Source: an uncultured Phocaeicola sp.
Lineage (GTDB): Bacteria; Bacteroidota; Bacteroidia; Bacteroidales; Bacteroidaceae
DNA: 21,226 bases
Assembly: GCA_958434805.1 (NCBI GenBank)
Contig: CAUBDX010000038.1
Span: 1-21,226, forward strand
Reading direction: 5' to 3'
In this document: positions 6,154 to 19,931 of the stretch, piece after piece
Layout of the letters: every line of letters starts with the position of its first letter
Position numbering within the stretch: position 1 is the first letter of the stretch
Notes under the pieces: generated by a model
Seen by the model: the letters and a program-made list of their open reading frames with translations, nothing else
Databases searched by the model: none
What the model was told of the DNA's origin: nothing
Translations under genes and position numbers: made by a program

Positions 6154-6188
6154 CTAAAAAAGGAAATCCGACATAATAATATATAGGT

Positions 6189-6215
6189 ATGAAAGTGTAT
6201 CATGACTCGGGATGA
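6189..6215 (+). CDS. octapeptide mini-ORF A3 (MKVYHDSG)
   Basis: Nine codons ending GGA-TGA-T. Stem GGGATG/CATCCC is extended by TCTGG/CCAGA, replacing the TCC/GGA of A2, a compensatory change. There is no clear Shine-Dalgarno sequence. Trp readthrough would end at TAA about 18 codons later. Confidence 0.5.
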   Translation: MKVYHDSG

Positions 6216-6283
6216 TCTGGCCAGACATCCCGTTCCGAAGAGACAGCAACACGAGTAGCAAACAATTAACAAAGGAGGTAACG

Positions 6284-6310
6284 ATGTACGGTTATTATGA
6301 TTCCGGTTGA
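6284..6310 (+). CDS. octapeptide mini-ORF B3 (MYGYYDSG)
   Basis: An AAAGGAGGTAACG site precedes the ATG. The peptide MYGYYDSG uses GGT for Gly where B1 and B2 use GGC. TGA lies in the loop of CCGG/CCGG. Trp readthrough gives WCRQ and TAA at 6320-6322. traE starts 98 bases after this TAA. Confidence 0.65.
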   Translation: MYGYYDSG

Positions 6311-6337
6311 TGCCGGCAGTAAACATGTGGTTGCAAG

Positions 6338-6370
6338 GACAAGCCGCGGGCATCCGGCCCGCGGCCTGTC
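6338..6370 (+). ncRNA. structured hairpin, unit 3, upstream of traE
   Basis: GACA/TGTC outer pairing and a perfect 9-bp GCCGCGGGC/GCCCGCGGC stem enclose ATCCG; AAAAAAG follows. It is the strongest of the three hairpins and ends 49 bases before the traE start. Confidence 0.6.
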
Positions 6371-6419
6371 AAAAAAGAAAGTCTGACAAACATTTATTAT
6401 AATAATTGGTATAAGAATA

Positions 6420-6803
6420 ATGAGACATTCAAGAACCCATTCATTTTTACGATTCTCCCCTATGGGCAAAGTGACGGACGTATTGGTATCCCTTATCGGG
6501 CGCATACCGGCCAGAACAGCCTTCCTGCTGGCATGACTGGCCACATGAGCAGCCCCCGCGTTCGCCGCCGGTGACGGGTCCGCCGGGCTGGTACAGGCCA
6601 CGCAGATGGTGAACAGCTATTTTGACCCCGCCGTGAAACTGATTTATGCGGCCGGCGCGCTCTGCGGGCTGATCGGGGCCATCCGCGTGTATTCCAAGTT
6701 CTCGTCGGGCGATCCGGATACGGGCAAGACCGCCGGAAGCTGGTTCGGGGCCTGCGTGTTCCTGATCGTGGCGGCCACGGTGCTGAGGTCGTTCTTCCTG
6801 TAA
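6420..6803 (+). CDS. traE: TraE, DUF4134 membrane protein, interrupted by two in-frame TGA codons
   Basis: Reading from the ATG at 6420 with TGA (6534-6536, codon 39; 6546-6548, codon 43) as Trp gives 127 aa. There is a signal peptide core FLLA-W-LAT-W-AAPAFA with probable cleavage before AGDGS, then the DUF4134 body: MVNSYFDPAVKLIYAAGALCG, RVYSKFSSGDPDTGK and SWFGACVFLIVAATVLRSFFL. Two membrane helices and this C-terminus are typical of TraE, a small inner-membrane VirB2/VirB3-like component. With TGA as stop only a 38-aa peptide is made, and the remaining ORF (from ATG 6606) lacks the signal peptide. An alternative start is ATG 6462. There is no frameshift. It is the first gene after the octapeptide array and 12 bases before traF. 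Confidence 0.85.
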
Positions 6804-6815
6804 CCCCCATGCCAT

Positions 6816-7166
6816 ATGGAATACAAGCTGAACAAGGGCGTCGGGCAGGACGTGGAGTTCTGCGGCCTGAAGGCGCAGTACCTCTACCTCTTTGCCGGCG
6901 GCCTGCTCGCCGTCTTCCTCGTGTTCGTCATCCTCTACATGGCGGGCGTGAACCGCTGGTTCTGCATCGCTCTCTGCGTCGTATCGGCCACGGGAATCAC
7001 CCTGGGCGTGTTCCGCCTGAACAGGAAATACGGCCCCCACGGGCTGATGAAGCTGGCGGCGGCAGGTTACCGTCCCTACTACATCATCAACAGAAAACGT
7101 ATCACCTCACTTTTTAAACGAAGAAAATATGCGAAACATACTCAAAGCGTCCACCCTGGAAAGTAA
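6816..7166 (+). CDS. traF: TraF, DUF4133 membrane protein
   Basis: This 116-aa protein starts EYKLNKGVGQDVEFCGLKAQY, a typical DUF4133 opening. Two transmembrane helices follow (about 24-45, LYLFAGGLLAVFLVFVILYMAG, and 48-67), then a basic tail with KYGPHGLMKLAAAGYRP. In these elements TraF is a VirB3-like inner-membrane protein encoded just before the VirB4 ATPase. It overlaps traG by 38 bases, so the last ~12 residues may not be conserved. TGG is used for Trp; the stop is TAA. Confidence 0.9.
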   Translation: MEYKLNKGVGQDVEFCGLKAQYLYLFAGGLLAVFLVFVILYMAGVNRWFCIALCVVSATGITLGVFRLNRKYGPHGLMKLAAAGYRPYYIINRKRITSLFKRRKYAKHTQSVHPGK

Positions 7167-9630
7167 GTTTCCCCTTCTCGCCGTCGAGGACGGGTGCATC
7201 CTCTCCAAGGACGCGGACGTGACCGTCGGCTTCAAGGTCCGCCTGCCGGAGATCTTCACCCTCACCTCCGACGATTACGAGGCCATGCACGGCGCATGAG
7301 GGAAGGCCATTAGGGTATTGCCCTGCCATACCATCGTCCACCGTCAGGACTGGTTCCTTGAGGAGGGCTACAGGGCACGCACCGACAGGGAGGAGCTGGG
7401 ATTCCTTGACCGCAGCTTCGAGCTCCATTTCAACGAGCGGCCCTTCCTGAACCACTTCTCGTACCTGTTCATCACCCGTACCACGAAGGGGCGCATGCGG
7501 CAGCAGAGCAACTTCTCCGTCCTCTGCAGGGGGCATATCCTCCCCAGGGAGGTCCGCGACAAGGACGGCGTCCTCCGCTTCCTGGAAGCCGTGGAGCAGT
7601 TCGAGCGCATCATCCGCGACTCCGGGCTGGTCCGTCTGGAACGGCTCACGACGGAGGAGATCACCGGAAAGGGAAAGGAGGCCGGCCTGGTGGAGAAATA
7701 CTTCTCCCTCTCGCAGGAGGACACCACCACGCTGGAGGACATCCGGCTCGGGGGCGCGGAAATGCGCGTCGGCGACAAACGGCTCTCGGTGCATACGCTT
7801 TCCGACGCGGACGACTTGCCCGCCGCGGTGCGGACGGACGGGCGGTTCGAGAAGTATTCCACCGACCGCAGCGACTGCCGCCTCTCCTTTGCCGCCCCCG
7901 TGGGGCTGATGCTGCCCCATAACCATATCTGCAACCTGTACGTGTTCATAGATGATCCGGCAGAGACCCTCCGGAATTTTGAGAAAGCGGCCAGGAATAT
8001 GCGCTCCCTCTCGCGCTACAGCCGCGCCAACGAGATCAACCGGCAGTGGACGGAGGAGTACCTGAACGAGGCGCATTCCTTCGGGCTGGTCCCCGTGCGT
8101 TGCCATTGCAACGTCATGGCCTGGTCGGAGGACAGGGAGAGGCTGAGGAACATCCGGAACGACACCGGCTCGGCCCTGGCACAGATGGGCTGCAAGCCCC
8201 GGCACAATACCGTGGACGCGCCGACCCTCTACTGGGCTGCCATTCCCGGCGGCGAGGGGGATTTTCCGGCTGAGGAGTCTTTCCATACGTTCATTGAGCA
8301 GGCGGCCTGCCTCTTCATCGGGGAGACGAACTACGCCTCCTCTCCCTCGCCATTCGGCATCAAGATGGCGGACCGGCTCAGCGGCAGGCCGCTGCACCTG
8401 GACATCTCGGACGAGCCGATGAGGCGGGGCATCACGACCAACCGCAACAAATTCATCCTGGGACCTTCGGGCAGCGGCAAGTCCTTCTTCACCAACCATC
8501 TCGTGCGCAACTATTACGAGCAGGGCGCGCACATCCTGCTGGTGGACACGGGAAACAGCTACAAGGGGCTGTGCCGGCTTATCCATGAGCGCACCCGCGG
8601 GGAGGACGGGATCTACATAACGTATGAGGAGGACCGCCCGTTCACCTTCAATCCCTTCTACAGCGAGGACCGGCAGTTCGACGTGGAAAAGAGGGAGAGC
8701 ATCAAGACGCTGATCCTGACGCTTTGGAAGCGGGAGGACGAGGTGCCGAAACGCTCCGAGGAGGTCGCCCTCTCCGGCGCAGTGAACGCCTATATCCGCA
8801 GGATTACGGACAACCCGGAGCTCCGGCCGGACTTCAACGGGTTCTACGAGTTTGTCCGTGACGACTACCGCCGGATGATGGAGAAAAAGAGGGTGCGCGA
8901 GAAGGACTTCGACATCGACGGGTTCCTGAACGTGCTGGAGCCGTTCTACAAGGGAGGGGACTATGACTTCCTCCTGAACTCGGACAAGGAGATCGACCTG
9001 ACCCACAAGCGGTTCATCGTCTTCGAGCTGGACAACATATCATCGAACAAGGTGCTGCTTCCGGTGGTGACGCTCATCATCATGGAGACGTTCATTTCCA
9101 AGATGCGCCGCCTGAAAGGCATCCGGAAGATGATACTGATCGAAGAATGTTGGAAAGCCCTGATGTCGGCCAATATGAGTGCCTATGTCTTGTACCTTTT
9201 CAAGACGGTCAGGAAGTATTTCGGTGAGGCGGTGGTGGTGACGCAGGAGGTGAACGACATCATCTCGTCCCCGATCGTGAAGGAGGCCATCATCAACAAC
9301 TCGGACTGCAAGATCCTGCTGGACCAGAGAAAGTACCTTAACAAGTTCGAACGGATACAGACCCTTTTGGGGCTGACCGACAAGGAATGCTCGCAGATCC
9401 TCTCCATCAACCGTGCCAACGACCCCTCACGCCGGTACAAGGAGGTATGAATAGGACTGGGAGGCGTGCAGTCGGCCGTCTATGCCACGGAGACCTCCAC
9501 GGCCGAGTACCTTACCTACACGACGGAGGAGAGCGAGAAGCTGGAAGTGGAACGGATGGCGGCAAAGACCGGCAGCATGGAACAGGCCATACGGGTACTG
9601 GCCGCCGAAAAGAACAGCGGCAGGAGATAA
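7129..9630 (+). CDS. traG: TraG, VirB4-type conjugation ATPase, interrupted by two in-frame TGA codons
   Basis: From ATG 7129 to TAA 9628-9630 the frame encodes 833 aa if TGA at 7297-7299 (codon 57) and 9448-9450 (codon 774) are sense. The N-terminus MRNILKASTLESKFPLLAVEDG matches TraG. The first TGA lies in YEAMHGA-W-GKAIRVLP, the second in RRYKEV-W-IGLGGVQSAVY; I recall Trp at both places in TraG homologues. Walker A GPSGSGKSFF is near residues 445-454 and the Walker B region MILIEECWKALM near 668-679. The protein energises the type IV secretion channel at the inner membrane. With TGA as stop, translation ends after 56 residues and no ATPase forms. No other stop or frameshift is present; at least six other Trp codons are TGG. 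Confidence 0.92.
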
Positions 9631-9660
9631 TCTTTGTAAAACATTTAAAAGAACGATTCA

Positions 9661-10287
9661 ATGAAACGAAAAATTTTCAGCGCATTGTGCGCCTTTTTAC
9701 TTACCGTACCGGCCATGCACGCGCAATGGGTGGTGACCGACCCGGGCAACCTGGCGCAGGGCATCGTGAACAGCGTCAACGAGATGGTGGAGACCTCCGA
9801 GACGGCACAGAACGCCATGTCCACCTTCAAGGAGGCCTCGAAAATCTATGAGCAAAGCCGGAAATACTACGACATGCTCAAGAGCGTGAACTCGCTGGTG
9901 AGCGGGAGCCTGAAGGTCAAGGAGTCCGTGCTGATGCTCTCGGAAATCTCGGAGAGCTACGTGACGAACTACGGGAAGATGCTCACCGACGAGAACTACA
10001 CGCAGCGGGAGCTGGAGGCCATCGCCTTCGGCTACAACAACATCATGAAGAAAAGCAGCGCGTCCGTGGCCGGGCTGAAGGACATCATCAACCCCACCGG
10101 CATGTCCATGACCGACAAGGAACGGCTGGACCTCATAGAAAGGGTGTACCGTGAGATGAGGCATTACAGGACGCTGGTGAACTACTATACCCGAAAGAAC
10201 CTGCGCGTCTCCTACCTGCGGGCCAGGGAGAAGGGCGAGACCGAGCAGGTCCTGAAACTTTACGGGGAGAACGAACGCTATTGGTAA
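9661..10287 (+). CDS. traI: TraI, DUF4141 conjugation protein
   Basis: This 208-aa protein has a signal peptide (MKRKIFSALCAFLLTVPAMHAQ, cleavage about residue 21), then a mostly helical body starting WVVTDPGNLAQGIVNSVNEMVETS, typical of the DUF4141 TraI proteins and similar in layout to VirB5-like periplasmic subunits. It begins 30 bases after the TraG stop and ends ERYW-TAA. Trp codons are TGG and there is no internal TGA. Confidence 0.9.
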   Translation: MKRKIFSALCAFLLTVPAMHAQWVVTDPGNLAQGIVNSVNEMVETSETAQNAMSTFKEASKIYEQSRKYYDMLKSVNSLVSGSLKVKESVLMLSEISESYVTNYGKMLTDENYTQRELEAIAFGYNNIMKKSSASVAGLKDIINPTGMSMTDKERLDLIERVYREMRHYRTLVNYYTRKNLRVSYLRAREKGETEQVLKLYGENERYW

Positions 10288-10310
10288 ACCTTTAAAAAGA
10301 TACAGACTAT

Positions 10311-11330
10311 ATGGTATTACTATCCCTATCTTTCGACAGCCTGCACGGTATCCTGCGCCGGCTGTATGACGAGATGACCGAACTCTGCCAGCCGATGATG
10401 ACGCTGGCCACGGCCATCGCCGCCCTGGGCGCGCTCTTCTACATAGCCTACCGCGTGTGGCAGTCCCTCTCGCATGCCGAACCGGTGGACGTGTTCGGCA
10501 TGCTGCGCCCCTTCTGCCTGGGCATCTGCATCCTGTTCTTCGACGTGATAGTACTGGGAAGCCTGAACGGTACCCTGAGCCCCGTCGTGCAGGGAACGGG
10601 TGCCATGCTCCACGACCAGACCTTCGACGTGAGGAAGTTCCAGGAGGAAAAGGACAGGCTGCTTTCCGAGATGCCCCTGAAGGTGGCCGTGACCGGGGAG
10701 TTCAACCCCACGGACGAGGAGCTGGAGAAGGAGATCGCCGACATGGGCTGGAACGGGGAGGACTACGCGGTGATGCAGCGGATGTCCCACACCTGTTACT
10801 CCTTCTCCCTGCAAAGCATCGTGCAGACCATCATGCGCAAGGTGATGGAGTTCCTTTTCCGCGCCGCCTCGCTGGTGGTGGACACGATCCGTACCTTCTT
10901 TCTCATCGTCCTCTCCGTGCTGGGGCCTATAGCCTTCGCGATCTCGGTCTTCGACGGTTTCCAGGGCACGCTCGTGCAGTGGCTGGCACGGTATATCAGC
11001 GTATACCTCTGGCTGCCCATCTCCGACCTGCTCGGGGTGATGCTCGCCAAGATACAGACGCTGGTGCTGCAAAGCGAGATGGAAATGATACAGGATCCCC
11101 TGAGCGTCTTCTCCCCGGACGGATCGACGGCCATCTATCTGGTGTTCATGCTCATCGGGCTGGTGGGATACTTCTGTGTCCCTACCGTGGCGAACTGGGT
11201 GGTACAGGCCGGCGGCATGGGGGCGTACAACCGGAACATGAACAACACGGCAAGCAAGGCCGCCAACGTGGGCGGGGCCGTAGCCGGGGCATCCACGGGC
11301 AACGTGGCCGGAGTGCTGCTGAAGAAGTAA
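10311..11330 (+). CDS. traJ: TraJ, polytopic conjugation membrane protein
   Basis: This 339-aa protein has several membrane helices: about 28-48 (MMTLATAIAALGALFYIAYRVW), 65-90, 190-220 (AASLVVDTIRTFFLIVLSVLGPIAFAIS) and 270-295. The charged loop around residues 100-150 and the Gly/Ala-rich C-terminus (GGAVAGASTGNVAG) fit CTnDOT TraJ, a VirB6-like inner-membrane channel protein. It lies 23 bases after traI and ends in TAA. All five Trp are TGG. Confidence 0.9.
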   Translation: MVLLSLSFDSLHGILRRLYDEMTELCQPMMTLATAIAALGALFYIAYRVWQSLSHAEPVDVFGMLRPFCLGICILFFDVIVLGSLNGTLSPVVQGTGAMLHDQTFDVRKFQEEKDRLLSEMPLKVAVTGEFNPTDEELEKEIADMGWNGEDYAVMQRMSHTCYSFSLQSIVQTIMRKVMEFLFRAASLVVDTIRTFFLIVLSVLGPIAFAISVFDGFQGTLVQWLARYISVYLWLPISDLLGVMLAKIQTLVLQSEMEMIQDPLSVFSPDGSTAIYLVFMLIGLVGYFCVPTVANWVVQAGGMGAYNRNMNNTASKAANVGGAVAGASTGNVAGVLLKK

Positions 11331-11367
11331 GGACGAACCGGGTAATAACATTCATTCATTTCAAGAC

Positions 11368-11991
11368 ATGGAATTCAAGAGCTTAAAAAACATCGAGTCC
11401 TCGTTCAGGCAGATCCGCCTGTTCAGTATCGTCTTCCTCGCCTCCTGCACCCTCCTGACCGGTTTTTCCGTCTGGAAGTCCTACCGGTTCGCCGAGGCGC
11501 AGCGGGAGAAGATCTACGTGCTGGACGAGGGGAAGTCGCTCATCATGGCCCTCTCGCAGGATGCCGCGCGCAACCGCCCGGTGGAAGCGAGGGAACACGT
11601 GCGCCGCCTGCACGAGCTGTTCTTCACGCTGGCCCCCGACAAGGCGGCCATCGAGTCGAACATAAACCGGGCGATGTACCTGGCCGACAAGAGCCTGTAC
11701 GGGTATTACCGGGACTGGAACGAGAAAGGGTTTTACAACCGGCTCATCAGCGGGAACGTCAACCAGACGGTGGTGGTGGACAGCATGAGCTGCGATTTCG
11801 ACAGCTATCCCTACCGCGTCACCACCTATGCCAGGCAGATGATCATCCGGGGGAGCAACATCACCGAACGCTCCCTGGTGACACGCTGCCGCCTGCAGAG
11901 CACGGTCCGCTCGGACAACAACCCGCAAGGGTTCCTTGCGGAGCATTTCGAGATTCTGGAAAACAGGGACCTGCGTACCGTGGAAAGGTAA
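11368..11991 (+). CDS. traK: TraK conjugation protein
   Basis: This 207-aa VirB8-like protein has a short cytoplasmic N-terminus (MEFKSLKNIESSFRQIRLFS), one transmembrane helix (about 21-40) and a periplasmic domain with SLIMALSQDAARNRPVEAREHVRRLHELFFTLAPD and a C-terminal FEILENRDLRTVER. These blocks are typical of Bacteroidales TraK, a core bridging component of the transfer apparatus. It lies 37 bases after traJ, within the same operon. Confidence 0.92.
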   Translation: MEFKSLKNIESSFRQIRLFSIVFLASCTLLTGFSVWKSYRFAEAQREKIYVLDEGKSLIMALSQDAARNRPVEAREHVRRLHELFFTLAPDKAAIESNINRAMYLADKSLYGYYRDWNEKGFYNRLISGNVNQTVVVDSMSCDFDSYPYRVTTYARQMIIRGSNITERSLVTRCRLQSTVRSDNNPQGFLAEHFEILENRDLRTVER

Positions 11992-12032
11992 CGGTGTCCC
12001 GCAGTAATCAATCATTCAATAATATCTGGAAA

Positions 12033-12329
12033 ATGGATATAAAATCAACGGCAAGGGAAAGGCTGAAGGCATATTTGGACGGCCTTTCCGAGAAACAGAG
12101 ACGGGGCATCCTCGTGGCGATGCTGGCCTTCACCTGCGTCGCATCGGGTATCGTCCTGCTGCGCGCCGCCGGCCGGCTGACACCGGCAAGGGAGCGCATG
12201 GAGCTTCCCTTCGGGGAAGGCAGCCTCACGGATACCCTGCGCAGGCTGCCCGATCCCCTGAAAGGACAAGTAACAAGTATTTACCGGACCATTAAACAAC
12301 CCCAGCAGAATGGAAAACAGGAAGAGTAA
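12033..12329 (+). CDS. traL: TraL, DUF3989 membrane protein
   Basis: This 98-aa protein starts at ATG 12033 (MDIKSTARERLKAYLDGLSEKQRR), preferred over an in-frame start at 11994 because the DUF3989 homology begins here. There is one transmembrane helix (about 25-43) and a charged tail ending RTIKQPQQNGKQEE, which resembles DUF3989 TraL proteins. It overlaps traM by 20 bases if traM starts at 12310. Confidence 0.85.
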   Translation: MDIKSTARERLKAYLDGLSEKQRRGILVAMLAFTCVASGIVLLRAAGRLTPARERMELPFGEGSLTDTLRRLPDPLKGQVTSIYRTIKQPQQNGKQEE

Positions 12330-13617
12330 CATGGAAGAAGGACACGTGCCCGCCGGGGAAGCCCCGGAAGGCACACGGCCGGCGGAAGCCGGGGATATCC
12401 CCTCCAAAGGGACAAAACCGGAAAAGCGGCTTAGCGGGGAGGAAATCCTGCGCCGCAGGAAATACATCGTCATACCGGTCTTCGTGCTGGTATTCCTGGC
12501 TGTCCTCTACTGGATATTCGCCCCTTCCGGTGACAACGGGGAAACGGTGGCGGGCGGTTCCGGATTCAACGTGAACGTACCGGACCCGGCAGCGGTCCAA
12601 CTGGAAGGGAATAAAACGGACGTTTATGAAAGACAGCAGGCCCGTCGCGAGAAAGACAGACGGATGCAGTCGCTTTCCGACCTTGCCGGAAGGTTGTTGG
12701 AAGGTAAGGGGCAAACGGACAGCGTCACCGCTCCAAACGGCAGCATACGGCAGTCGGCGGACACTTACGAGAAGATCACGGAGCAGCTGGAAAGTTTCTA
12801 CGAGACACCGCAGGAAACGGCCGGCGGCCTGGAACAGAAGGTGGATGAGCTGAACCGCCGGCTGGAAGAGGCAGAAGCGGAAAAACGGCGAGCAGAATCC
12901 CGCGAGCGGATGATGGAACAGTCCTACCGGATGGCCGCCAGGTACCTGACCCCCAACCCGGAAGGCTCGCCCGGCGAGGCGAAGGAGGAAGAAAAGCCGG
13001 AGCCTGTCCCTGTCAGCCGGGCGGAGAGCGGAACGACCTCCGCCCTGGAGCAGCCGCTGGCGGATTCCGCGTTTGTCGCCTCACTGGCCGTGGAGAGGAA
13101 CTACGGTTTCAACACGGCGGTGGGCAGCAGCTACCGGATGGGGATGAACACCATCCCGGCCTGCATCTCCGAGAATCAGACCCTCGAGCAGGGAGGACGG
13201 GTGAAGCTGCGCCTGCTCGAGCCCCTGCAGGCCGGAAGTGTCACTGTGCCGGCCAACAGCCTGGTGACCGGTACGGCCGACATCCGGGGGGAACGTCTGG
13301 ACATCCTGGTAAGCAGCATCGAATATGCCGGGAATATCATCCCGGTAGAACTGGCCACATATGACATTGACGGGCAGCGGGGCATCTTCGTGCCGGGATC
13401 GGAAAGCCGGACGGCCGCCAAGGAAGTATTGGGGGACGTGAGCCAGAGCATGGGAGGCAGCATCTCCTTCGCCGGTTCCGCCGGGCAGCAGGTGGCGATG
13501 GACCTCACGCGGGGTGTCCTGCAAGGCGGGACACGGTTCATCTCGCAGCGGGTCAAGGCGGTCAAGGTAAAGCTGAAGGCCGGGTACAAGGTGTTACTGG
13601 TCACAAAAAAGCAATAA
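12310..13617 (+). CDS. traM: TraM conjugation protein
   Basis: This 435-aa VirB10-like protein has a proline-rich cytoplasmic N-terminus, one membrane helix (about 55-73, YIVIPVFVLVFLAVLYWIF), a coiled-coil segment (about 170-215, ELNRRLEEAEAEKRRAESRE) and a C-terminal beta-rich domain with IPACISENQTLEQGGRVKLRLLE and VPANSLVTGTADI, the signature of Bacteroides TraM. It likely links inner- and outer-membrane parts of the channel. ATG 12331, just after the traL TAA, is an equally good start (428 aa). Confidence 0.92.
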   Translation: MENRKSNMEEGHVPAGEAPEGTRPAEAGDIPSKGTKPEKRLSGEEILRRRKYIVIPVFVLVFLAVLYWIFAPSGDNGETVAGGSGFNVNVPDPAAVQLEGNKTDVYERQQARREKDRRMQSLSDLAGRLLEGKGQTDSVTAPNGSIRQSADTYEKITEQLESFYETPQETAGGLEQKVDELNRRLEEAEAEKRRAESRERMMEQSYRMAARYLTPNPEGSPGEAKEEEKPEPVPVSRAESGTTSALEQPLADSAFVASLAVERNYGFNTAVGSSYRMGMNTIPACISENQTLEQGGRVKLRLLEPLQAGSVTVPANSLVTGTADIRGERLDILVSSIEYAGNIIPVELATYDIDGQRGIFVPGSESRTAAKEVLGDVSQSMGGSISFAGSAGQQVAMDLTRGVLQGGTRFISQRVKAVKVKLKAGYKVLLVTKKQ

Positions 13618-13653
13618 CAAGGTTTAACTGTAATTTTTAAGCAATCATTCAAG

Positions 13654-14547
13654 ATGAGAACATTCATTCTTTTAATCATGGCTGCGCTGGCGGGGATGAC
13701 CTGCCGGGCGCAGGAGCGCAAGCCGGAGGGCGGAGTCAGGATCCTGACCGCCGGCCAGCACATCACGCCCTACAGGATCGGCGTGCCCTTCAGCAAGACG
13801 GTTCATATCCTTTTCCCCTCGGAGGTCCGCTATGTCGACCTGGGCAGCACGGACATCATCGCGGGCAAGGCGGACGGCGTGGAGAACGTGGTGCGCGTAA
13901 AGGCGACCGTCCGGGATTTCCCCGGCGAGACGAACTTCTCGGTCATCACGGGCGACGGATCGTTCTATTCGTTCCTCGTCTCCTACGAGGAGGAGCCGGA
14001 AGCGTTGAACATCAATATGGACAGCCGGTTTCCGACAGAATCCTCCACTGAGGGAAGCGCCGTCCGTGTGACCGAGCTCGGCGAGGAGGACCCTTCGGTC
14101 ATCGCCAGCCTGATGTACACCGTACACCGTCTGGACCGCAGGGACGTGAAGCATATCGGTTGCCGCCAGTTCGGGATACAGGCCCTGCTCAAGGGCATCT
14201 ATGTGCATAAGGACCTGCTGTTCCTCCACATCTCATTGGCCAACTCCTCGCATGTGCCCTTCGACATTGACTTCGTGCGCTTCAAGGTGGTGGACAAGAA
14301 AGTGGCCAAGCGAACGGCACAGCAGGAGACCTACATCGAGCCGGTGCGCGCGCTCAACGAGCTGAGGCGCATAGAGGGCAAGGGGAAAGGACGCATCGTC
14401 TATGCTTTCCACAAGGTGGTCATCCCCGATGACAAGCTCATCGAGGTGGAGATTTACGAAAAAGGCGGCGGACGCCACCAGCGGTTCCATATCGAGAACA
14501 GTGACCTGGTGGACGCCGGACTGGTGGACGAACTGATAAAGGAGTAA
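13654..14547 (+). CDS. traN: TraN, DUF4138 conjugation protein
   Basis: This 297-aa secreted protein has a signal peptide (MRTFILLIMAALAGMTCRAQ) followed by ITPYRIGVPFSKTVHILFPSEVRYVDLGS, the hallmark of VirB9-like TraN. A C-terminal domain (about 190-297) carries RFKVVDKKVAKRTAQQE and DDKLIEVEIYEKGGGRHQRF. It acts in the periplasm as part of the outer core complex. It lies 36 bases after traM and 4 bases before traO. Confidence 0.92.
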   Translation: MRTFILLIMAALAGMTCRAQERKPEGGVRILTAGQHITPYRIGVPFSKTVHILFPSEVRYVDLGSTDIIAGKADGVENVVRVKATVRDFPGETNFSVITGDGSFYSFLVSYEEEPEALNINMDSRFPTESSTEGSAVRVTELGEEDPSVIASLMYTVHRLDRRDVKHIGCRQFGIQALLKGIYVHKDLLFLHISLANSSHVPFDIDFVRFKVVDKKVAKRTAQQETYIEPVRALNELRRIEGKGKGRIVYAFHKVVIPDDKLIEVEIYEKGGGRHQRFHIENSDLVDAGLVDELIKE

Positions 14548-14551
14548 TTCT

Positions 14552-15139
14552 ATGAGGAAATATCTGTTTATAATAATGATGTGCGCCTTCCTGTCCTCTT
14601 TGGCGGGCAAGGTTTCCGCCCAACGCTACCTGCCCGGGCAGACGGGGCTTGAACTGAGGCTGGGCGGCGTGGATGACTTCGGAAGGAACGTAAGGCACCT
14701 GAGGGGGAATTTCCAGATCGGACTGGCCCTGAGCCGTTACAACCGCAACCGCTCGCGCTGGGTATTCGGGGCGGATTATGTGAAGAAGCATTACGCCTAT
14801 AAGAAAATAGCGGTTCCCAAGGAGCAGTTCACCGCGGAGGCGGGCTGTCTCTTCCCGTTCCTCTCGGACAGGGGCAGGAACGTGTTCCTCTCCGCCGGCC
14901 TGTCCGCGCTGGCCGGTTATGAGAGGATAAACCGGAATGGCAGGCTCCTTTATGACGGGGCGACCCTGCTGCACAAGGGGGCCTTCATCTACGGCTTCGC
15001 CCCGGCATTTGAAATGGAGGCGTACCTGACCGACCGCTGGGCTTTTCTTTTCAATGTCCGGCAGCGTGTCTTCTTCGGATCGTCCGTAGGACATTTCCAT
15101 ACGGTAGTGGCCGTCGGACTGAAATATATCATCGATTAA
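14552..15139 (+). CDS. traO: TraO conjugation protein
   Basis: This 195-aa protein has a signal peptide (MRKYLFIIMMCAFLSSLAGKVSAQ) and a beta-rich body with GQTGLELRLGG, GNFQIGLALSRYNRNRSRWVFGADY and a C-terminal HFHTVVAVGLKYIID, typical of TraO, an outer-membrane-associated beta-barrel-like protein. Trp codons are TGG. It is 4 bases from traN and 20 bases from traQ. Confidence 0.9.
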   Translation: MRKYLFIIMMCAFLSSLAGKVSAQRYLPGQTGLELRLGGVDDFGRNVRHLRGNFQIGLALSRYNRNRSRWVFGADYVKKHYAYKKIAVPKEQFTAEAGCLFPFLSDRGRNVFLSAGLSALAGYERINRNGRLLYDGATLLHKGAFIYGFAPAFEMEAYLTDRWAFLFNVRQRVFFGSSVGHFHTVVAVGLKYIID

Positions 15140-15159
15140 TCTTTTAAGAACTGGAAACA

Positions 15160-15654
15160 ATGAAATTAGGAACATTCATCATGGGATGCGCGCTGGCCCT
15201 GCTGGCGTGCACCCTTGCCGGCTGCGACGACCGTCTGGAGGTGCGGCAGGCATACGACTTCTCGCTCTCTTCCTGGTACCTGCAAGAAGGTATTGAGCCG
15301 GATGAGACGGTGGAGATCCGTCTGACGCTTAACCGCGAGGGGGATTATCGCGAGGCCCGTTACCGCGTCGGATACATACAGCTGGAGGGTGACGGTGAGG
15401 TGTTCGCCGCGGACGGCACCAGACTGGTGAACCGCGAGCTGACGGAGCTCTCCGGCATCGCAGGGCTGGACACGACGGACATCCGCCGCCAGGTGTTCAC
15501 CCTCTTTTACCGGAACACGGGTGGGGACAATCCCGGGATCCGCTTCGTGGCGGTGGACAACTTCGGCGTGGAACGGACACTGGACATCCCGTTCTCCATC
15601 GAGGATAAAGATATAACCAACATCGTTAAAAATAAGGAACCATATGTTGATTAG
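15160..15654 (+). CDS. traQ: TraQ, DUF3872 lipoprotein
   Basis: This 164-aa protein has a lipoprotein signal (MKLGTFIMGCALALLACTLAGC) with lipobox LAGC, then CDDRLEVRQAYDFSLSSWYLQ and repeated beta segments with VEIRLTLNREG and FTLFYRN, as in DUF3872 TraQ. traP (primase), which normally sits between traO and traQ, is absent. The stop TAG overlaps the start of the next gene by 11 bases. Confidence 0.88.
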   Translation: MKLGTFIMGCALALLACTLAGCDDRLEVRQAYDFSLSSWYLQEGIEPDETVEIRLTLNREGDYREARYRVGYIQLEGDGEVFAADGTRLVNRELTELSGIAGLDTTDIRRQVFTLFYRNTGGDNPGIRFVAVDNFGVERTLDIPFSIEDKDITNIVKNKEPYVD

Positions 15655-16147
15655 GAGAGTTTGGCAAATGCCCAACAGTCGTACATTCAGTATCAAGCCT
15701 ATTCGGGAACTCATTCAAAAATACGCAAACGGCTATACCATAGATCCGTTTGCGGCCGGGAACAGGCTTGCGAACGTAACGAATGATATTGATCCCCAGT
15801 ATGATACTGATTTTCATATGGATGCCACGGATTTCCTGAATTTATTTAAACCGGATAGTGTGGATACGGTTCTATATGATCCTCCTTATTCTCCACGGCA
15901 AGTTGCGGAATGTTATAAAGCGTTAGGGATCACGGTCAATATGCAAACCACCCAGGCTTCATACTGAAGCAGGCAGAAAGAGGCCATCGGTCGAATTGTA
16001 AAAAAAGGAGGCATTGTAATCACCTGCGGATGGAACTCTGGTGGAATAGGCAAGAAATACGGTTTTGAAATCATAGAGATTCTATTGGTCGCCCACGGCG
16101 GGTGGCATAATGATACGATCGTGACAGTGGAAAAAAAAGTATTATAG
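15644..16147 (+). CDS. adenine-methyltransferase-like protein, interrupted by one in-frame TGA
   Basis: From ATG 15644 (alternative ATG 15668) to TAG 16145-16147 the frame encodes 167 aa with TGA at 15965-15967 (codon 108) read as Trp. Motifs are TIDPFAAGNRLANVTNDIDP (about 36-55), the catalytic-type DPPYS (about 82-86), then QASY-W-SRQKEAIGRIVKKGGIVITCGWNSGGIGKK and LLVAHGGWHNDTI. The small DPPY-containing methylases of Bacteroidales elements have this layout, and I recall Trp after the Tyr. Termination at TGA would remove the last 60 residues, including the GGW block. The gene is clearly more AT-rich than the tra genes, which suggests separate acquisition. The frame after TGA is intact. Confidence 0.85.
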
Positions 16148-16150
16148 AAT

Positions 16151-16615
16151 ATGACGGAACAGGAAAAATACGGCATGGAGCAGCTTGCCGAGTATCTGGA
16201 CATGCGGATACGGAACGAGGAAAAAAATATAAAGGAGAACCGGGATAAACTGGACCGGGATTACCTTTATCATTTTGCGTGGAACGGGGAGGAGCTGTTC
16301 AAGTCCCATTTCATGGTAAAGCAATACGGGGAACTCCGGCAGGTAATCAGGGTGGCGGAAGCTCCCGGGGAGGTGCATGGATATATACAGCATAAACGGG
16401 AGGAATGCCTGAAGGAGCTGGTCAGCGGGAGTATCCGCAGGCGTAGCACGGACGATATTTTCAATCTGGCACATACCTACCGGCTGGAATGTATGCAGGG
16501 ACTGGTCAAGGATTATGCTGGCTTCGAACGGCTTCTGTCCATGAAGGCTCCCCAGAAGGAGATAAAAACGAAGAAGGCCCCTGAAAGAAAGAGGCCGGAC
16601 GGATTAAAGATGTAA
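16151..16615 (+). CDS. hypothetical protein, paralogue 1 of 3
   Basis: This 154-aa charged helical protein is the first of three tandem paralogues. Shared features are an N-terminal helix with L..L.D.[RK]I, a central aromatic patch (YLYHFAWNGEELFKSH) and the C-terminal block RRSTDDIFNLAHTYRLECMQGLVKDYAGFERLL. It ends in a basic tail (KKAPERKRPDGLKM). No known family is recognised. It starts 4 bases after the methyltransferase stop, so it is in the same operon. No signal peptide or membrane helix is seen, so it is cytoplasmic. Confidence 0.75.
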   Translation: MTEQEKYGMEQLAEYLDMRIRNEEKNIKENRDKLDRDYLYHFAWNGEELFKSHFMVKQYGELRQVIRVAEAPGEVHGYIQHKREECLKELVSGSIRRRSTDDIFNLAHTYRLECMQGLVKDYAGFERLLSMKAPQKEIKTKKAPERKRPDGLKM

Positions 16616-16620
16616 CGTAT

Positions 16621-17085
16621 ATGAGGCAGGAAAACTGGAGCGTCCGCAAACTACGGAAATTGCTGGACAACAAGATCGCAGCCGTCGAGAATGTCATGCG
16701 CGAGGGGTTGGAGTCCGCCTCTACGGACTACTGCCGTTTCTTTGAGTGGAAAGCCGCGTACCTGTACAAGGGGGAGCTACTGCGCGGGCATTACCGCCTG
16801 TTACGTAATAAAGTCAGCAGGACGGATGACGTGGAGGATCTGAAGAGGTATTTCGGGGATATCGCCATGTACCACAGGGAAAGGCTGACGGGCGGAACGC
16901 CGGCGGGAAGCGGCACCCACCCGATGGCGGACACCTGCCGCGCGCTGTCGCTGGAATGCTCGCGGCAGGTGCTGAAAGATTGCATGGAGTTCTCGCGTAT
17001 CCTTTCCCTCGGACAGCCGGAAGAGGACGTGAAAAAGGAAAACAGACAACCCGTAAAACATAGGACGAACGGATTAAAACGATAA
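16621..17085 (+). CDS. hypothetical protein, paralogue 2 of 3
   Basis: This 154-aa protein starts 6 bases after paralogue 1. It keeps the pattern DYCRFFEWKAAYLYKGELLRG near residues 36-56 and HPMADTCRALSLECSRQVLKDCMEFSRIL near 100-128, with a basic tail ending NGLKR. Sequence identity to its neighbours is low but layout and length are the same, so the duplication is old. Function is unknown. Confidence 0.72.
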   Translation: MRQENWSVRKLRKLLDNKIAAVENVMREGLESASTDYCRFFEWKAAYLYKGELLRGHYRLLRNKVSRTDDVEDLKRYFGDIAMYHRERLTGGTPAGSGTHPMADTCRALSLECSRQVLKDCMEFSRILSLGQPEEDVKKENRQPVKHRTNGLKR

Positions 17086-17088
17086 GGT

Positions 17089-17556
17089 ATGGAAAGACAG
17101 AACCCAGGCATGGTCCGGTTTATGGACCGGCTGAATGAGAAAATGGAACTCCTGGACGAAAAGATCCAGAACAAGGCGGCAAAAGCCGGTGAGGATTACC
17201 TCTCCTTTTTCGAGTCACACGCGGAAGAGGCGTACAAGGAGTATTACCTGTACAAATGTTTCAGGGACTTGAGAAAGAAGGCAAGGGAATCGGGCAGTCC
17301 GGAAAAAGTGTTGGAGTATCTGAAAAAGAGGCAGAATGTCTGCCTGGACACGTTGCTCAGGCAGGACATCGCCGCCCGCAGTACAAGCCCGATGGCGAAC
17401 ATGGCGCACACGCTGCGGCTCGAATGCGTCCAGCAGCTCGTGGAGGATTACGGGCATTTCATCCGGATACTTGCCGACACGCTACGGCAGCAGGAGACGC
17501 GGCGGGATACCCGGACACTCAAGGAAAAGGAAAACCGGAGGGGGCCAAAACTATAG
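17089..17556 (+). CDS. hypothetical protein, paralogue 3 of 3
   Basis: This 155-aa protein starts 3 bases after paralogue 2. It carries EDYLSFFESHAEEAYKEYYL (about 35-54) and the family block RSTSPMANMAHTLRLECVQQLVEDYGHFIRIL (about 101-132), then a charged tail. The high helix content and repeated Leu/Glu pattern suggest a small helical bundle. Function is unknown; tandem triplication suggests paralogues with different partners or targets. Confidence 0.72.
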   Translation: MERQNPGMVRFMDRLNEKMELLDEKIQNKAAKAGEDYLSFFESHAEEAYKEYYLYKCFRDLRKKARESGSPEKVLEYLKKRQNVCLDTLLRQDIAARSTSPMANMAHTLRLECVQQLVEDYGHFIRILADTLRQQETRRDTRTLKEKENRRGPKL

Positions 17557-17606
17557 CCTTCCCGTTCCCGGATGAGTACGGGAATAAAGAAAAATAAAGT
17601 TAAGTT

Positions 17607-17663
17607 ATGGATAATGAGAGTTATATCATTATGAAAGGTCAGGATGGCCGCTTTACTTTGTGA
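17607..17663 (+). CDS. possible 18-aa ORF with TGA (extends to 32 aa if TGA is Trp)
   Basis: The frame MDNESYIIMKGQDGRFTL ends in TGA at 17661-17663. If TGA is Trp it continues NKNNWT, a second TGA, then GLWSIA and TAA (17703-17705). The L-W-NKNNW result looks protein-like, but the second TGA overlaps the next gene's ATG (17681), so this is weak. It fills the gap between paralogue 3 and the gene at 17681. Confidence 0.3.
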   Translation: MDNESYIIMKGQDGRFTL

Positions 17664-17680
17664 AATAAAAACAACTGGAC

Positions 17681-18010
17681 ATGAGGATTATGGAGCATAG
17701 CGTAAGACGTTGGGAGTCTTACCCGGAAGCAGACACGGAAACCTGCCTGTGGGAAGCCTGCGTGGAGCACGAAGGCGAATATTACGAGGTGCAAGTGGAA
17801 GCAAGGGAGGTCGGCGGTGACAAGATGTATTATATGGGGTATATCAGGAATACCCAATGTATAAAAGCGCATTTCAGTGACGGCTGGCTGGGCTTCGGCT
17901 TTTCCGATATACGTGGCACGTGCAAGTATATCCTGAAGTCAATGCGGAAAGTGATCCGGGGGGACTACAGCTCCATCAGGGGAGCGGGCCATTCGGTAGA
18001 CATGCCTTGA
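17681..18010 (+). CDS. hypothetical protein (109 aa)
   Basis: This acidic, aromatic-rich protein has no recognised family. It contains CVEHEGEYYEVQVEAREVGG and SDGWLGFGFSDIRGTCKYILKSMRK, likely a small mixed alpha/beta domain. ATG 17690 is an alternative start. The end is TGA immediately followed by TAA, so even if TGA were read as Trp only one residue would be added. A strong terminator follows at 18041, which marks this as the last gene of the rightward operon. Confidence 0.65.
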   Translation: MRIMEHSVRRWESYPEADTETCLWEACVEHEGEYYEVQVEAREVGGDKMYYMGYIRNTQCIKAHFSDGWLGFGFSDIRGTCKYILKSMRKVIRGDYSSIRGAGHSVDMP

Positions 18011-18040
18011 TAAATAAACCAGGTCCGGGACGGAGATTTC

Positions 18041-18082
18041 AAGGGCTGTTCTCCCAAATAACGGGGAACAGCCCTTTTTTTG
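18041..18082 (+). terminator. strong terminator at the end of the rightward operon
   Basis: AAGGGCTGTTC (18041-18051) pairs perfectly with GAACAGCCCTT (18066-18076), with further CCC/GGG pairing inside, followed by a run of T to 18082. It separates the rightward genes from the leftward operon that ends at 18103. Confidence 0.92.
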
Positions 18083-18102
18083 TTGCCGCCAGCGGCGAAA
18101 GG

Positions 18103-18879
18103 TTAAAAGAGAGACAGGCTGCTGAAGAGGCAGTGGATGAACAGACGGCCCTTCTCGGTCCACACCGTATGCATGGCCGTACCGGTTTCCCCGCAGCGGC
18201 TCTGCCAGCTGTGCGTATGGGTTTGTGTGTATCCTTCCTTCTGATAACGTGCGGTAAGCAGCCAGGTTCCGCCTTGGCGGAACTGGATACCGAGAGCCTT
18301 CAGCCTCCGGTTCAGCTCCCTGCCGCTCATGCCCAACTCCTTGGCGATCTGCGTGACCGTGTAAGTGCTTGGAGAGTGGAGCACCTCGTCGAAATAACGT
18401 ACTTTCGGGGCCTGCAGGCTCAATTTAAGGGCGTTCAGCGCGTTTTCCTTTTCCAGTCCGGATATGTACCGGTCACGCTCTCTCAGCTTGGCCTCCGCCA
18501 GTTGCAGGGTCCGCGAGAGCAGTTCCGCGTCCGTTTCCCCCTCTTTTCCCAGCAGATAGCCGCCCTCCTTGAGCGTGCGGGGGACCAGCTCGTCGAAGAT
18601 CCAGCTTTCGAACCTCTCGGCCGAGGGCAGGCGGCTACAGGCCATCAGGCGGTACAGGTTCCCCTCGTCGATGAACTTCACTTTCTGTCGGCCGCCTGCC
18701 GTCAGGAGGTCGTGGACGCATACCCCCTTCGGCCTGCAATGCCGGTTGACGGCATCCTTGGGATTGGCGTATCCCAATGCCGAGGCCACGTCCCTGGCGC
18801 AAAACCAGACCCTGCCTCCGGCTTCCACGGTCCGGACCTTGCCGAACTCGGGATGTTCTGTTATGACTAACGTGCGCAT
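18103..18879 (-). CDS. phage-type antirepressor (Bro-N with KilA-type C-terminus)
   Basis: This 258-aa protein has an N-terminal Bro-N domain (about 5-105: VWFCARDVASALGYANPKDAVNRHC, FIDEGNLYRLMACSRL, FESWIFDELVPRTLKEGGYL), a coiled linker, and a C-terminal antirepressor DNA-binding domain (about 170-230: TVTQIAKELGMSGRELNRRLKALG, QGGTWLLTARYQKEGY). Such proteins regulate phage or element repressors. It is the last gene of the leftward operon, 5 bases after the cytosine methyltransferase. All Trp codons are TGG, and it ends in TAA. Confidence 0.9.
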   Translation of the reverse strand: MRTLVITEHPEFGKVRTVEAGGRVWFCARDVASALGYANPKDAVNRHCRPKGVCVHDLLTAGGRQKVKFIDEGNLYRLMACSRLPSAERFESWIFDELVPRTLKEGGYLLGKEGETDAELLSRTLQLAEAKLRERDRYISGLEKENALNALKLSLQAPKVRYFDEVLHSPSTYTVTQIAKELGMSGRELNRRLKALGIQFRQGGTWLLTARYQKEGYTQTHTHSWQSRCGETGTAMHTVWTEKGRLFIHCLFSSLSLF

Positions 18880-18884
18880 GTCGT

Positions 18885-19931
18885 TTACTGTTTATAGGTT
18901 GATTCTATCGCTTTGAATATCTCATGGATTACCTGGGGGACGATGGCGTTCCCGTATCCCTTGACGGACTGCTGCCGCCAGGAAGAAAAGGTAATACCGT
19001 CCAGCTCGTGGGGAACCCCATCATCTCGGCCACAAACAGGGGATTGAGTTGGAAACTCCTCCCAGTTTGGGCAAAGGAATCGGGAAGGCCGCCCTGCCGC
19101 GGGTTCTTCCCCTTCCTCCCAATGTGCTCCAAGGTCGGGAGCAGCCCGTGGAAGTCAAGGAAGTCCGTCAGGCCGTTGGGATTCTTCTCCCCGTCTTCCG
19201 TCTCGTGCATGGAGGTGCGCCCCTGACGTTTCCAACGTTCCACCCGTTGCCAGTGGTGTATCTCCGTTGCTGTCGGGGTGGGCAGCAGCATCTCGCGGAT
19301 GATCTCCGGCAGGCCCTTCTGTTGGCTTCCGGGTCCCCTTACCTTGAAGTCCGAGGCTATCGGCGTGGGCAACAAACCATACACGGTCCCTTCTGTGCGG
19401 GGCACCGACGGCACAAGCCGGAATAAGCAGCGGCTGGACGGTATATCCTTCACGCTCAAGATCACGGCAGATGGTCTCGACGACGTATTCCTCCCGCTTA
19501 CGGTATACAGGCTGATCCTCTCCGAACAGAGAGGGCTGACATCCCACGTGAGCCGCCTTGCCGGGCTGTACCACCTGGAGGATGCCACCAACGTTCTCAC
19601 CAACAATCCAACCGGGCCGGATCTCGTGAATGGCACGGAGCATGTGAGGCCAGAGGTAACGGCTGTCCTCCGCACCCTTTCGCCGGCCGGCAACGGAAAA
19701 GGGCTGGCATGGAAAACCTCCCGTGAGGATGTCGATCCGTCCCCTTCATCCCCGAAAATCCGTAGTTGTAATATCCGTATAACTTTTTGCATGGCTGAAC
19801 CAGTAATTTAAAATTCGGTTACAAAACTCATCTATCTCACAGTGGAAGGCGTTGCGCCATCCCATTCATTCGGCGGCAAGATCTGCCGCACCAAACCCGC
19901 TGAAAAGCGAGGCGTGTACCAGCTGTCTCAT
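18885..19931 (-). CDS. C5-cytosine DNA methyltransferase, interrupted by three in-frame TGA codons
   Basis: The minus-strand frame from ATG at 19931 to TAA at 18885-18887 gives 348 aa if TGA at 19868-19866 (codon 22), 19748-19746 (codon 62) and 19157-19155 (codon 259) are Trp. The motifs then fall in order: motif I SLFSGFGAADLAAE-W (8-22), FRG-W-RGRIDILTGGFPCQPFS with catalytic Cys75, GENVGG (111-116), RRDRVWF (about 180-186), FPTQSPVCGRDDG and motif X GNAIVPQV (about 327-334). The first two TGA lie in blocks where I recall Trp in Bacteroidales homologues. With TGA as stop no fragment holds all motifs. No TAA, TAG or frameshift occurs, and eight or more other Trp codons are TGG. It may protect element DNA from host restriction. 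It starts 5 bases after the upstream gene's stop. Confidence 0.9.

What the first reader, a model, noticed from the sequence alone, without database searches (positions are those of the whole stretch)
6420..19931. Eight in-frame TGA codons in four genes all fit as tryptophan
traE (6534, 6546), traG (7297, 9448), the methyltransferase at 15644 (15965) and the minus-strand cytosine methyltransferase (19866, 19746, 19155; lowest base of each) are each open from start to TAA or TAG if TGA is sense. None has TAA, TAG or a frameshift inside. Decay of TGG codons should give TAG about as often as TGA, and should also make stops from Gln or Arg codons; none is seen. Family motifs resume correctly after every TGA. 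I found no such report for a CTnDOT-type element, though I cannot search. Candidate mechanisms are a tRNA-Trp(UCA), programmed readthrough by normal tRNA-Trp, or A-to-I editing of UGA to UGI.
Basis: partly seen in the sequence, partly recalled or inferred. Interest (0 to 1): 0.95.

Follow-up and report, generated by a model that had tools for sequence, protein, structure and literature searches.

The report
Conjugation genes using UGA as tryptophan
A family of mobile elements in gut Bacteroides-type bacteria appears to spell some tryptophans in its DNA-transfer genes with the stop codon UGA, next to a row of tiny UGA-ended genes, which may make transfer depend on a switch in how the cell reads UGA.

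Summary
The eight in-frame TGAs are real and do not look like artefact or decay. All eight recur in an independent genome, five in B. xylanisolvens XB1A, and several in a second lineage only ~69% identical in TraG, at the same codons although synonymous sites are near saturation. Five of eight sites are mostly Trp in homologues; two traE signal-peptide sites and MTase codon 259 (mostly Gly) are not. In the fullest copy (G001, ~74 kb) TGA is also in frame in mobA, relaxase, coupling-protein, Dam, primase, M23 peptidase and topoisomerase genes, and in none of the regulator and integrase genes. TGA ends 1 of 34 transfer-block genes against 9 of 27 others. No element tRNA was found; the tRNA-Trp genes recovered from two carriers look ordinary and RF2 is present. 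New: the tra leader holds 4-7 tandem mini-ORFs, M-x-x-[YF]-[YFH]-D-S-[GS]-UGA. Searching by that motif alone found six more genomes, all with UGA in the tra genes reached. Best reading: a UGA lock on transfer genes, read as Trp when RF2 is limiting; the mini-ORFs act on or sense RF2. UGA=Trp is supported by comparison only; the mechanism is inferred.

The parts
3415..4344 (+). amidoligase (PF12224), standard code, ends in TGA; with o4341 a marker of recoded elements
   Evidence: Pfam E 5.5e-47; in 7 of 7 recoded contigs tested, 0 of 62 other loci, which reach only ~10 kb from traG
4341..4574 (+). small gene overlapping the amidoligase (ATGA), ends in TGA; no Pfam match
5735..6419 (+). leader of the tra operon with tandem UGA-ended mini-ORFs and GC-rich hairpins
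5752..5778 (+). mini-ORF 1 MEKYHDSS-TGA (in-frame ATG also at 5746)
5855..5881 (+). mini-ORF 2 MYSYHDSG-TGA, AGGAGG upstream
5975..6001 (+). mini-ORF 3 MKEYHDSG-TGA
6068..6094 (+). mini-ORF 4 MYSYYDSG-TGA, AGGAGG upstream
6189..6215 (+). mini-ORF 5 MKVYHDSG-TGA
6284..6310 (+). mini-ORF 6 MYGYYDSG-TGA, AGGAGG upstream; followed by a motif shared with lineage B
6420..6803 (+). traE (DUF4134); TGA at 6534 (codon 39) and 6546 (codon 43)
   Evidence: PF13572; codon 39 TGA in 9 of 9 recoded copies reached, codon 43 in the three of lineage A only
7129..9630 (+). traG, VirB4-like ATPase; TGA at 7297 and 9448
   Evidence: TIGR03783 1527.9 bits over 1-823; first TGA in 8 of 8, second in 5 of 7 recoded copies reached
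12310..13617 (+). traM; codon 68 is TGG here but TGA in XB1A and in 4 of 4 lineage-B copies
15644..16147 (+). m1, methyltransferase-like (from DPPY motif and a database name, not a family match); TGA at 15965 (codon 108)
   Evidence: Trp in 117 of 120 homologues; no Pfam match
18885..19931 (-). m5, C5 cytosine methyltransferase; TGA at 19866, 19746, 19155 (lowest base)
   Evidence: PF00145; codons 22 and 62 TGA in XB1A and B. finegoldii

Best explanation
This is the transfer region of a CTnDOT-like conjugative transposon of Bacteroidales that works in two codes. Regulatory and integration genes use UGA as stop; transfer genes (tra, mob, primase, topoisomerase and associated methyltransferases) carry UGA codons that are decoded as Trp. 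SHOWN by comparison: the UGAs are old, sit largely at the same codons in two lineages while synonymous sites have nearly saturated, occur in genes under purifying selection on both sides of the UGA, and go with a scarcity of UGA terminators in the same blocks. SHOWN by sequence: the tra leader carries tandem mini-ORFs ending in aromatic-[YFH]-D-S-[GS]-UGA-U, in the recoded elements whose leader could be read and in no other locus examined. INFERRED: UGA is read by near-cognate host tRNA-Trp(CCA) when RF2 is limiting, so the UGAs act as locks that keep transfer genes off until then. INFERRED, weaker: the mini-ORF nascent peptides hold RF2 at their UGA; enough copies lower free RF2 (an effector acting in trans) or they report RF2 activity to the operon (a sensor acting in cis).
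For: Conservation: 8 of 8 TGAs in G001; 5 of 8 in XB1A, which lacks m1, plus a different TGA in its traM; lineage B has TGA at traE39 (6 of 6), traG53 (5 of 5 reached), traG770 (3 of 4), traK36 (4 of 4), traM68 (4 of 4), m5-22 (3 of 3), m5-318 (4 of 4) and m5-62 (1 of 4). Of 32 Trp columns shared by the lineages (33 with m5-271) the 6 TGA columns of lineage A all fall among the 8 of lineage B, hypergeometric 3e-5 on hand-counted columns, while window-G920 third-base agreement for Lys/Glu/Gln is 0.63/0.56/0.78 against 0.58/0.52/0.69 expected. Selection: TraG codons 1-52 are as conserved as the rest (aa identity 0.77; 54-769 0.69; 771-824 0.78; window-G920). Specificity: in 154 loci (some overlapping), ~352,710 aligned codons, 15 of the 16 truly internal TGAs are in this family. 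Element-wide in G001: coupling protein Trp in 52 of 53 homologues, primase codon 53 16 of 16. Terminators: tra genes 0 of 65 TGA in recoded copies vs 224 of 847 elsewhere; traF 0 of 8 vs 112 of 133. Mini-ORFs: a pattern allowing TAA, TAG, TGA or TGG found 24 matches in 158 genomes of XB1A's genus, all TGA, all in the six lineage-B leaders; in those leaders (four of the six aligned) 6 of 60 columns of codons 4-8 vary against 60 of 178 outside, start and stop codons never. Context: mini-ORF UGA is followed by U in 38 of 38; internal UGA by A at 9 of 12 sites and never by U. Hosts: tRNA-Trp genes recovered are CCA; RF2 present; 13 of 33 long ORFs beside the G001 element end in TGA.
Against: No protein, ribosome or transfer data: decoding as Trp and any action of the mini-ORFs are inferred. 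Lineages A and B are monophyletic (support 1.0), so the link between leader and recoding rests on one origin; other genes (amidoligase pair, kilA, m5, o19937) show the same distribution, and P values over related copies overstate the case. Four of six lineage-B leaders are near-copies. Synonymous sites are not fully saturated in all A-B pairs (XB1A-G933 Glu 0.64 vs 0.50). Three of eight window sites, and the mobA and relaxase sites, are not Trp in homologues. The block contrast in terminators was drawn after seeing the data; ten other non-transfer G001 genes have no TGA terminator, and with them it is 1 of 34 vs 9 of 27, P 0.003. The peptide-based search favours synonymous variation; found by DNA similarity alone, the window's six copies vary at 3 third, 2 first and 0 second positions in codons 4-8 (read), and lineage B shows only a weak third-position bias (3, 2, 1 of 20). 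m5 of G933 also has an in-frame TAA and its traG a frame break. Host prfB shows internal TGA, consistent with the usual autoregulation (recalled), which would oppose RF2 depletion. A leader array may trap too few RF2. The XB1A leader is partly N. Mob and topB evidence is from G001, not the window's own element.
Confidence: 0.58

Rival explanations
1. UGA is decoded as Trp, but by a tRNA encoded outside the element or too unusual for the scans; the mini-ORFs are only a cis sensor or attenuator of UGA decoding.
For: Phage code switching uses suppressor tRNAs (abstract of PMC10879173). A conserved GTGGTTGCAAG and a GC-rich hairpin follow the last mini-ORF in both lineages, an attenuator-like layout. 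Only 150 of 247 and 150 of 294 candidate tRNA places were scored in the two genomes, three of XB1A's 56 matches were not fetched, and one tRNA-like gene of undetermined anticodon lies at ~1.0 Mb of XB1A, far from the element.
Against: No tRNA in any element region examined; no UCA anticodon among the tRNAs recovered; no intrinsic terminator in the window leader.
Confidence: 0.25
2. Ordinary leaky UGA readthrough by tRNA-Trp at low level, with the UGAs conserved as dampers that keep transfer proteins scarce; no switch.
For: Largely fixed positions of the UGAs; mostly UGAA rather than UGAU contexts.
Against: Does not explain the scarcity of UGA terminators in transfer genes (0 of 65 tra copies), nor the UGA-only mini-ORFs, nor two or more UGAs per protein.
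Confidence: 0.16
3. Another element gene causes UGA decoding, for example the amidoligase with its small partner gene, or an unknown protein, by modifying RF2, tRNA-Trp or the mini-ORF peptides.
For: Amidoligase and o4341 are in 7 of 7 recoded contigs tested and 0 of 62 other loci; both end in TGA and so fall in the standard-code set.
Against: kilA, m5 and others are equally restricted; no functional link shown.
Confidence: 0.15
4. Pseudogenes: an inactive element spread by hitch-hiking or helped in trans.
For: Standard gene calling breaks these genes; two G933 genes carry other lesions.
Against: No internal TAA/TAG in the TGA-bearing genes of the window, XB1A or G001, purifying selection on both sides, same sites kept across lineages, truncated ORFs of this type in clusters spanning up to 210 contigs.
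Confidence: 0.04
5. Assembly or sequencing error.
For: None found.
Against: TGA at some or all of these codons in nine other records: G001, XB1A, B. finegoldii (m5) and six lineage-B genomes.
Confidence: 0.01

Closest known systems
CTnDOT-type conjugative transposons of Bacteroidetes
   Same: TraG, TraJ, TraK, TraM, TraN families; in G001 also RteC, a hybrid histidine kinase and a sigma-54 type regulator (rteA/rteB-like), relaxase and YWFCY coupling protein
   Different: UGA inside transfer genes, no TGA terminators in the tra genes, tandem UGA-ended mini-ORFs; not seen in the other 150 loci examined, many with short flanks
Phage late-gene stop-codon recoding (code switch; abstract of PMC10879173 seen, PMC9523058 search listing only)
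   Same: Mobile DNA in a standard-code host; recoded codons in one functional class of genes, standard code in the regulatory class
   Different: Conjugative element, UGA to Trp, no suppressor tRNA found, largely fixed codon positions, mini-ORF array
Release-factor trapping by apidaecin (PMC7544508, passages read) and TnaC arrest (PMC8429421, search listing only)
   Same: A short peptide acts on the terminating ribosome; apidaecin depletes free RF2 and causes stop-codon readthrough; TnaC is a leader peptide
   Different: Here a conserved UGA-ended mini-ORF array in a conjugative element; action on RF2 not shown
UGA reading by 4-bp anticodon-stem tRNA-Trp(CCA) (PMC13092985, passages read)
   Same: UGA read as Trp in bacteria
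   Different: The tRNA-Trp genes recovered from two carriers have a 5-bp stem (read by eye)

Membership tests
CTnDOT-type conjugative transposon | Bacteroidetes Tra protein families in operon order | tested here: met
   TIGR03783, 03782, 03781, 03779, 03780 above cut-off
CTnDOT-type conjugative transposon | rteA/rteB/RteC regulators and mobilisation genes | tested here: met
   In G001 only; these genes are not in the window
Phage-type late-gene recoding | Stop codons in frame in one functional class, standard code in regulators | tested here: met
Phage-type late-gene recoding | Cognate suppressor tRNA in the element | tested here: not met
   the XB1A stretch contains N
Genome-wide UGA=Trp code (NCBI table 4) | RF2 lost and TGA unused as stop in the host | tested here: not met
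   prfB present in both carriers; 13 of 33 ORFs of 200 aa or more next to the G001 element end in TGA
UGA-reading tRNA-Trp variants (UCA anticodon, G24A, 4-bp stem) | Variant tRNA-Trp in the carrier | tested here: inconclusive
   Two tRNA-Trp genes recovered in each of G001 and XB1A, all CCA, G24 and 5-bp stem by eye; not every candidate place was scored
Selenocysteine recoding | SECIS-type element and Cys/Sec in homologues | tested here: not met
   Homologues have Trp or other residues at the aligned sites (one Cys among 120 at m1-108); no SECIS or tRNA-Sec match in Rfam scans
Release-factor trapping or arrest leader peptide | Translated, conserved C-terminal peptide with a specific stop | tested here: inconclusive
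   Start, stop and codons 4-8 conserved, TGA in all copies; third-position bias weak in lineage B; translation not shown
Release-factor trapping or arrest leader peptide | Stalls termination or retains the release factor | not testable with these tools
   Needs toeprinting or ribosome profiling
Pseudogene | Mixed lesions and relaxed selection | tested here: not met
   exceptions in G933

The most novel reading that the evidence does not exclude
The element carries its own code switch without a tRNA: an array of minigenes whose nascent peptides, ending aromatic-[YFH]-D-S-[GS] at UGA-U, capture RF2, lower termination at UGA across the cell, and so unlock a set of conserved UGA codons in the transfer genes, which are then read as Trp by the host tRNA. 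Conjugation is thereby gated at the level of codon meaning.
Probability: 0.33. Interest if true: 0.97.

Novelty: new variant of a known kind. Interest (0 to 1): 0.92.

Why it matters
If true, a conjugative element gates its transfer by what UGA means, not only by transcription. Stop-codon recoding by mobile DNA, known from phages with suppressor tRNAs, would extend to conjugative transposons of human gut Bacteroidales and to a route that needs no tRNA. It makes the question of what triggers code switching testable with a 27-base minigene. It also means the transfer genes of this element family are likely to be annotated as fragments: 74 of the 120 best TraG hits do not cover codon 53 (that a TGA is the cause is inferred for most of them).

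Tried and rejected
Methylation or mutation signature: the eight contexts share no motif downstream of the TGA (read by eye). Stop-restart producing two polypeptides: the first 52 codons of TraG are as conserved as the rest, and the SAM-binding start of the C5-MTase (motif placed from memory) lies before its first TGA. Frameshift in the MTase: overlapping frame only. Suppressor tRNA. Viral contigs: two distant TraG loci and no mini-ORF match. A coding-potential scan was insensitive to most sites. Plasmid records gave m5 with TGA at codons 22 and 62 in B. finegoldii; the other two fetched records gave nothing on TGA. Mini-ORFs as a DNA operator only: not excluded, but start, stop and codons 4-8 are kept better than their surroundings. 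Papers: ten searches showed no report of UGA recoding in a conjugative element among the rows listed (at most 20 a search, of up to 354); most subscription papers and preprints are not held. A Fisher test used 36 transfer genes; the right count is 34, rerun. In one search the row for o17681 had shifted coordinates; its TGATAA ending is. The Fisher value for leader against recoding treats related elements as independent and is not used. Many of the 150 other loci have short flanks, so absence of the leader is best tested in the 79 loci L102-L180. Names rteA, rteB, mobA-C and topB are by resemblance; labels 'mfa/fimbria' are from memory and were not searched.
Full report
What is there. The window is the transfer region of a CTnDOT-like conjugative transposon: TraG, TraJ, TraK, TraM and TraN match NCBI's Bacteroidetes conjugative-transposon models above cut-off, with a ParA protein, an amidoligase, a KilA-type antirepressor and a C5 cytosine methyltransferase around them. 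No resistance gene was seen among the window and G001 proteins that I scanned with Pfam, which are not all of them.

Not an artefact. The window's own assembly is not held. The nearest genome, G001, carries the region at 98.6-99.5% identity with all eight TGAs. B. xylanisolvens XB1A (NC_021017) carries the tra genes at ~94% identity with TGA at both traE sites, traG 53, m5 22 and m5 62, TGG at traG 770 and GGA at m5 259, no m1, and a TGA of its own at traM 68 where the window has TGG. A B. finegoldii plasmid record has m5 with TGA at 22 and 62.

What the codons mean. Homologues mostly have Trp at traG 53 and 770, m1 108, m5 22 and m5 62. They do not at traE 39 and 43 or m5 259. TGA and TGG replace each other at the same codon between relatives (traG 770, traM 68, m5 62), and at m5 213 lineage-B copies show TGA, TGG or TGC, as expected if UGA is read as Trp.

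It spans the element. G001 holds a ~74 kb element. In-frame TGA occurs in eleven tabulated genes: traE, traG, m1, m5, mobA (MobC_2 family), the relaxase, the YWFCY coupling protein, a D12-class Dam methyltransferase, a DnaG-type primase, an M23 peptidase and a topoisomerase, with no internal TAA or TAG. Homologues have Trp at the coupling-protein site (52 of 53) and at primase codon 53 (16 of 16), but not at the mobA and relaxase sites; the Dam, peptidase, topoisomerase and second primase sites were not scored. The other tabulated genes, including the rteA-, rteB- and RteC-like regulators and the integrases, have none. TGA ends 9 of 17 genes between the tra and mob blocks, 0 of 10 in an inserted stretch and the integrase end, and 1 of 34 in the transfer blocks, that one being TGATAA; Fisher 6.6e-5 against the 17, 0.003 against all 27, with blocks drawn after seeing the data. 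In other families 224 of 847 tra terminators are TGA against 0 of 65 here; traF alone is 112 of 133 against 0 of 8. These copies are related, so the P values are only a guide.

It is peculiar to this family. In 154 loci (some overlapping) with about 352,710 aligned codons, 15 internal TGAs fall in G001 and XB1A copies and one elsewhere (L144, beside a TAG); the other stops are natural ends of traF, stretches before traE starts, or scattered lesions in L091, L133, L144 and L176. In the protein database 74 of the best 120 TraG hits do not cover codon 53, and clusters span up to 210 contigs (B. caccae) and 146 contigs (P. distasonis).

The leader. The 685 bases before traE hold six mini-ORFs, M-x-x-Y-[HY]-D-S-[GS]-TGA; three have AGGAGG a few bases upstream. 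G001 has seven; XB1A has one plus a stretch of N. None of the other CTn loci then held has one. Over 16 distinct ends the stop is always TGA. That search was by peptide, which itself favours synonymous differences; the window's six copies found by DNA similarity alone vary at three third, two first and no second positions of codons 4-8 and all keep ATG and TGA.

A prediction that could have failed. I searched the mini-ORF pattern alone in 158 genomes of XB1A's genus and 123 genomes of G001's family; the reversed control gave none. Besides XB1A and G001 it hit six new genomes. In all six, four mini-ORFs stand before traE, and the tra genes reached, only ~69% identical in TraG, carry TGA at traE 39 (6 of 6), traG 53 (5 of 5), traG 770 (3 of 4), traK 36 and traM 68 (4 of 4 each), m5 22 (3 of 3), m5 318 (4 of 4) and m5 62 (1 of 4). 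A pattern with relaxed residues and any of TAA, TAG, TGA or TGG found 24 matches, all TGA, all in those six leaders; its reversed control gave one match. In four of these leaders, aligned, 6 of 60 columns of codons 4-8 vary against 60 of 178 outside the mini-ORFs, and no start or stop codon does. Four of the six leaders are near-copies, so this is about three independent sequences.

The positions are kept. Lineage A (window, G001, XB1A) and lineage B form one clade with support 1.0 in a tree of 78 sequences, seven of them recoded. Between window and G920 third-base agreement for Lys, Glu and Gln is near random expectation, but TGA and TGG agree at 28 of 32 Trp codons (Fisher 0.004); other A-B pairs are somewhat less saturated. 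The six TGA columns of A are all among the eight of B, out of 32 (3e-5). TGA is therefore probably not merely tolerated; these codons seem to be kept as TGA.

Context. The base after the mini-ORF TGA is T in 38 of 38 copies (the first pattern asked for T, the second did not); after internal TGAs it is A at 9 of 12 sites and never T, against A at 16 and T at 8 of 46 TGG sites. UGAU is, from memory, the strongest RF2 context in E. coli, so the mini-ORFs look like true RF2 sites and the internal codons like weaker ones.

How it may work. No tRNA was found in any element piece. Both carriers have RF2, and the tRNA-Trp genes recovered are ordinary CCA ones. Because only UGA is affected, RF2 is the natural target: UAA and UAG remain readable by RF1. 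Apidaecin shows that a short peptide can deplete free RF2 and cause readthrough (passages of PMC7544508). I propose that the mini-ORF peptides act on RF2 at their own UGA. Whether they act cell-wide, which is needed for the distant mob genes, or only report UGA decoding to the tra operon cannot be settled here. A conserved GTGGTTGCAAG and a GC-rich hairpin follow the last mini-ORF in both lineages, which suits a sensor; several copies suit an effector.

Against. No experiment; one origin of the trait; other family-specific genes (amidoligase pair, kilA, m5) share the distribution; G933 has a TAA in m5 and a frame break in traG; host prfB shows internal TGA and probably autoregulates; XB1A also has a tRNA-like gene of undetermined anticodon far from the element that I did not follow. 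Ten literature searches showed no such report among the rows listed, but preprints and most subscription papers are not held.

Noticed in passing
window 592-1227: Array of 7.4 copies of an 87-bp repeat with CTCCATT/AATGGAG arms, left of the DUF3408 genes; a similar stretch occurs in XB1A.
   Followed up: no
window 6338-6370 and G001 leader: The 5-bp loop of the GC-rich hairpin before traE is inverted in G001 relative to the window (by eye).
   Followed up: no
lineage-B traG, e.g. L303:1879-4338 (G920), about codon 690: A ~2.46 kb insert carrying an ORF that reads like a group II intron reverse transcriptase (by eye, no family search) interrupts traG in G918, G920 and G1012; G933 shows a frame break at the same place.
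   Followed up: partly
window 18929-19792, minus strand: A second long open frame with repeated LLPTP overlaps the C5-MTase gene in another frame.
   Followed up: no
G001:C1:136218-143167: A ~7 kb insertion with N6-DNA methylases and a tyrosine integrase lies at window position ~17670 in the G001 copy.
   Followed up: partly
window 3415-4574: Amidoligase and small partner gene found in 7 of 7 recoded contigs tested and none of 62 other loci; might modify a peptide or a translation factor.
   Followed up: partly
G001:C1:201854-204071: DarT- and ADP-ribosylglycohydrolase-like gene pair near the element's integrase end.
   Followed up: no
L250 (XB1A ~1,004,546-1,004,617): A tRNA-like gene with undetermined anticodon, near two weaker tRNA matches, far from the element.
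   Followed up: no
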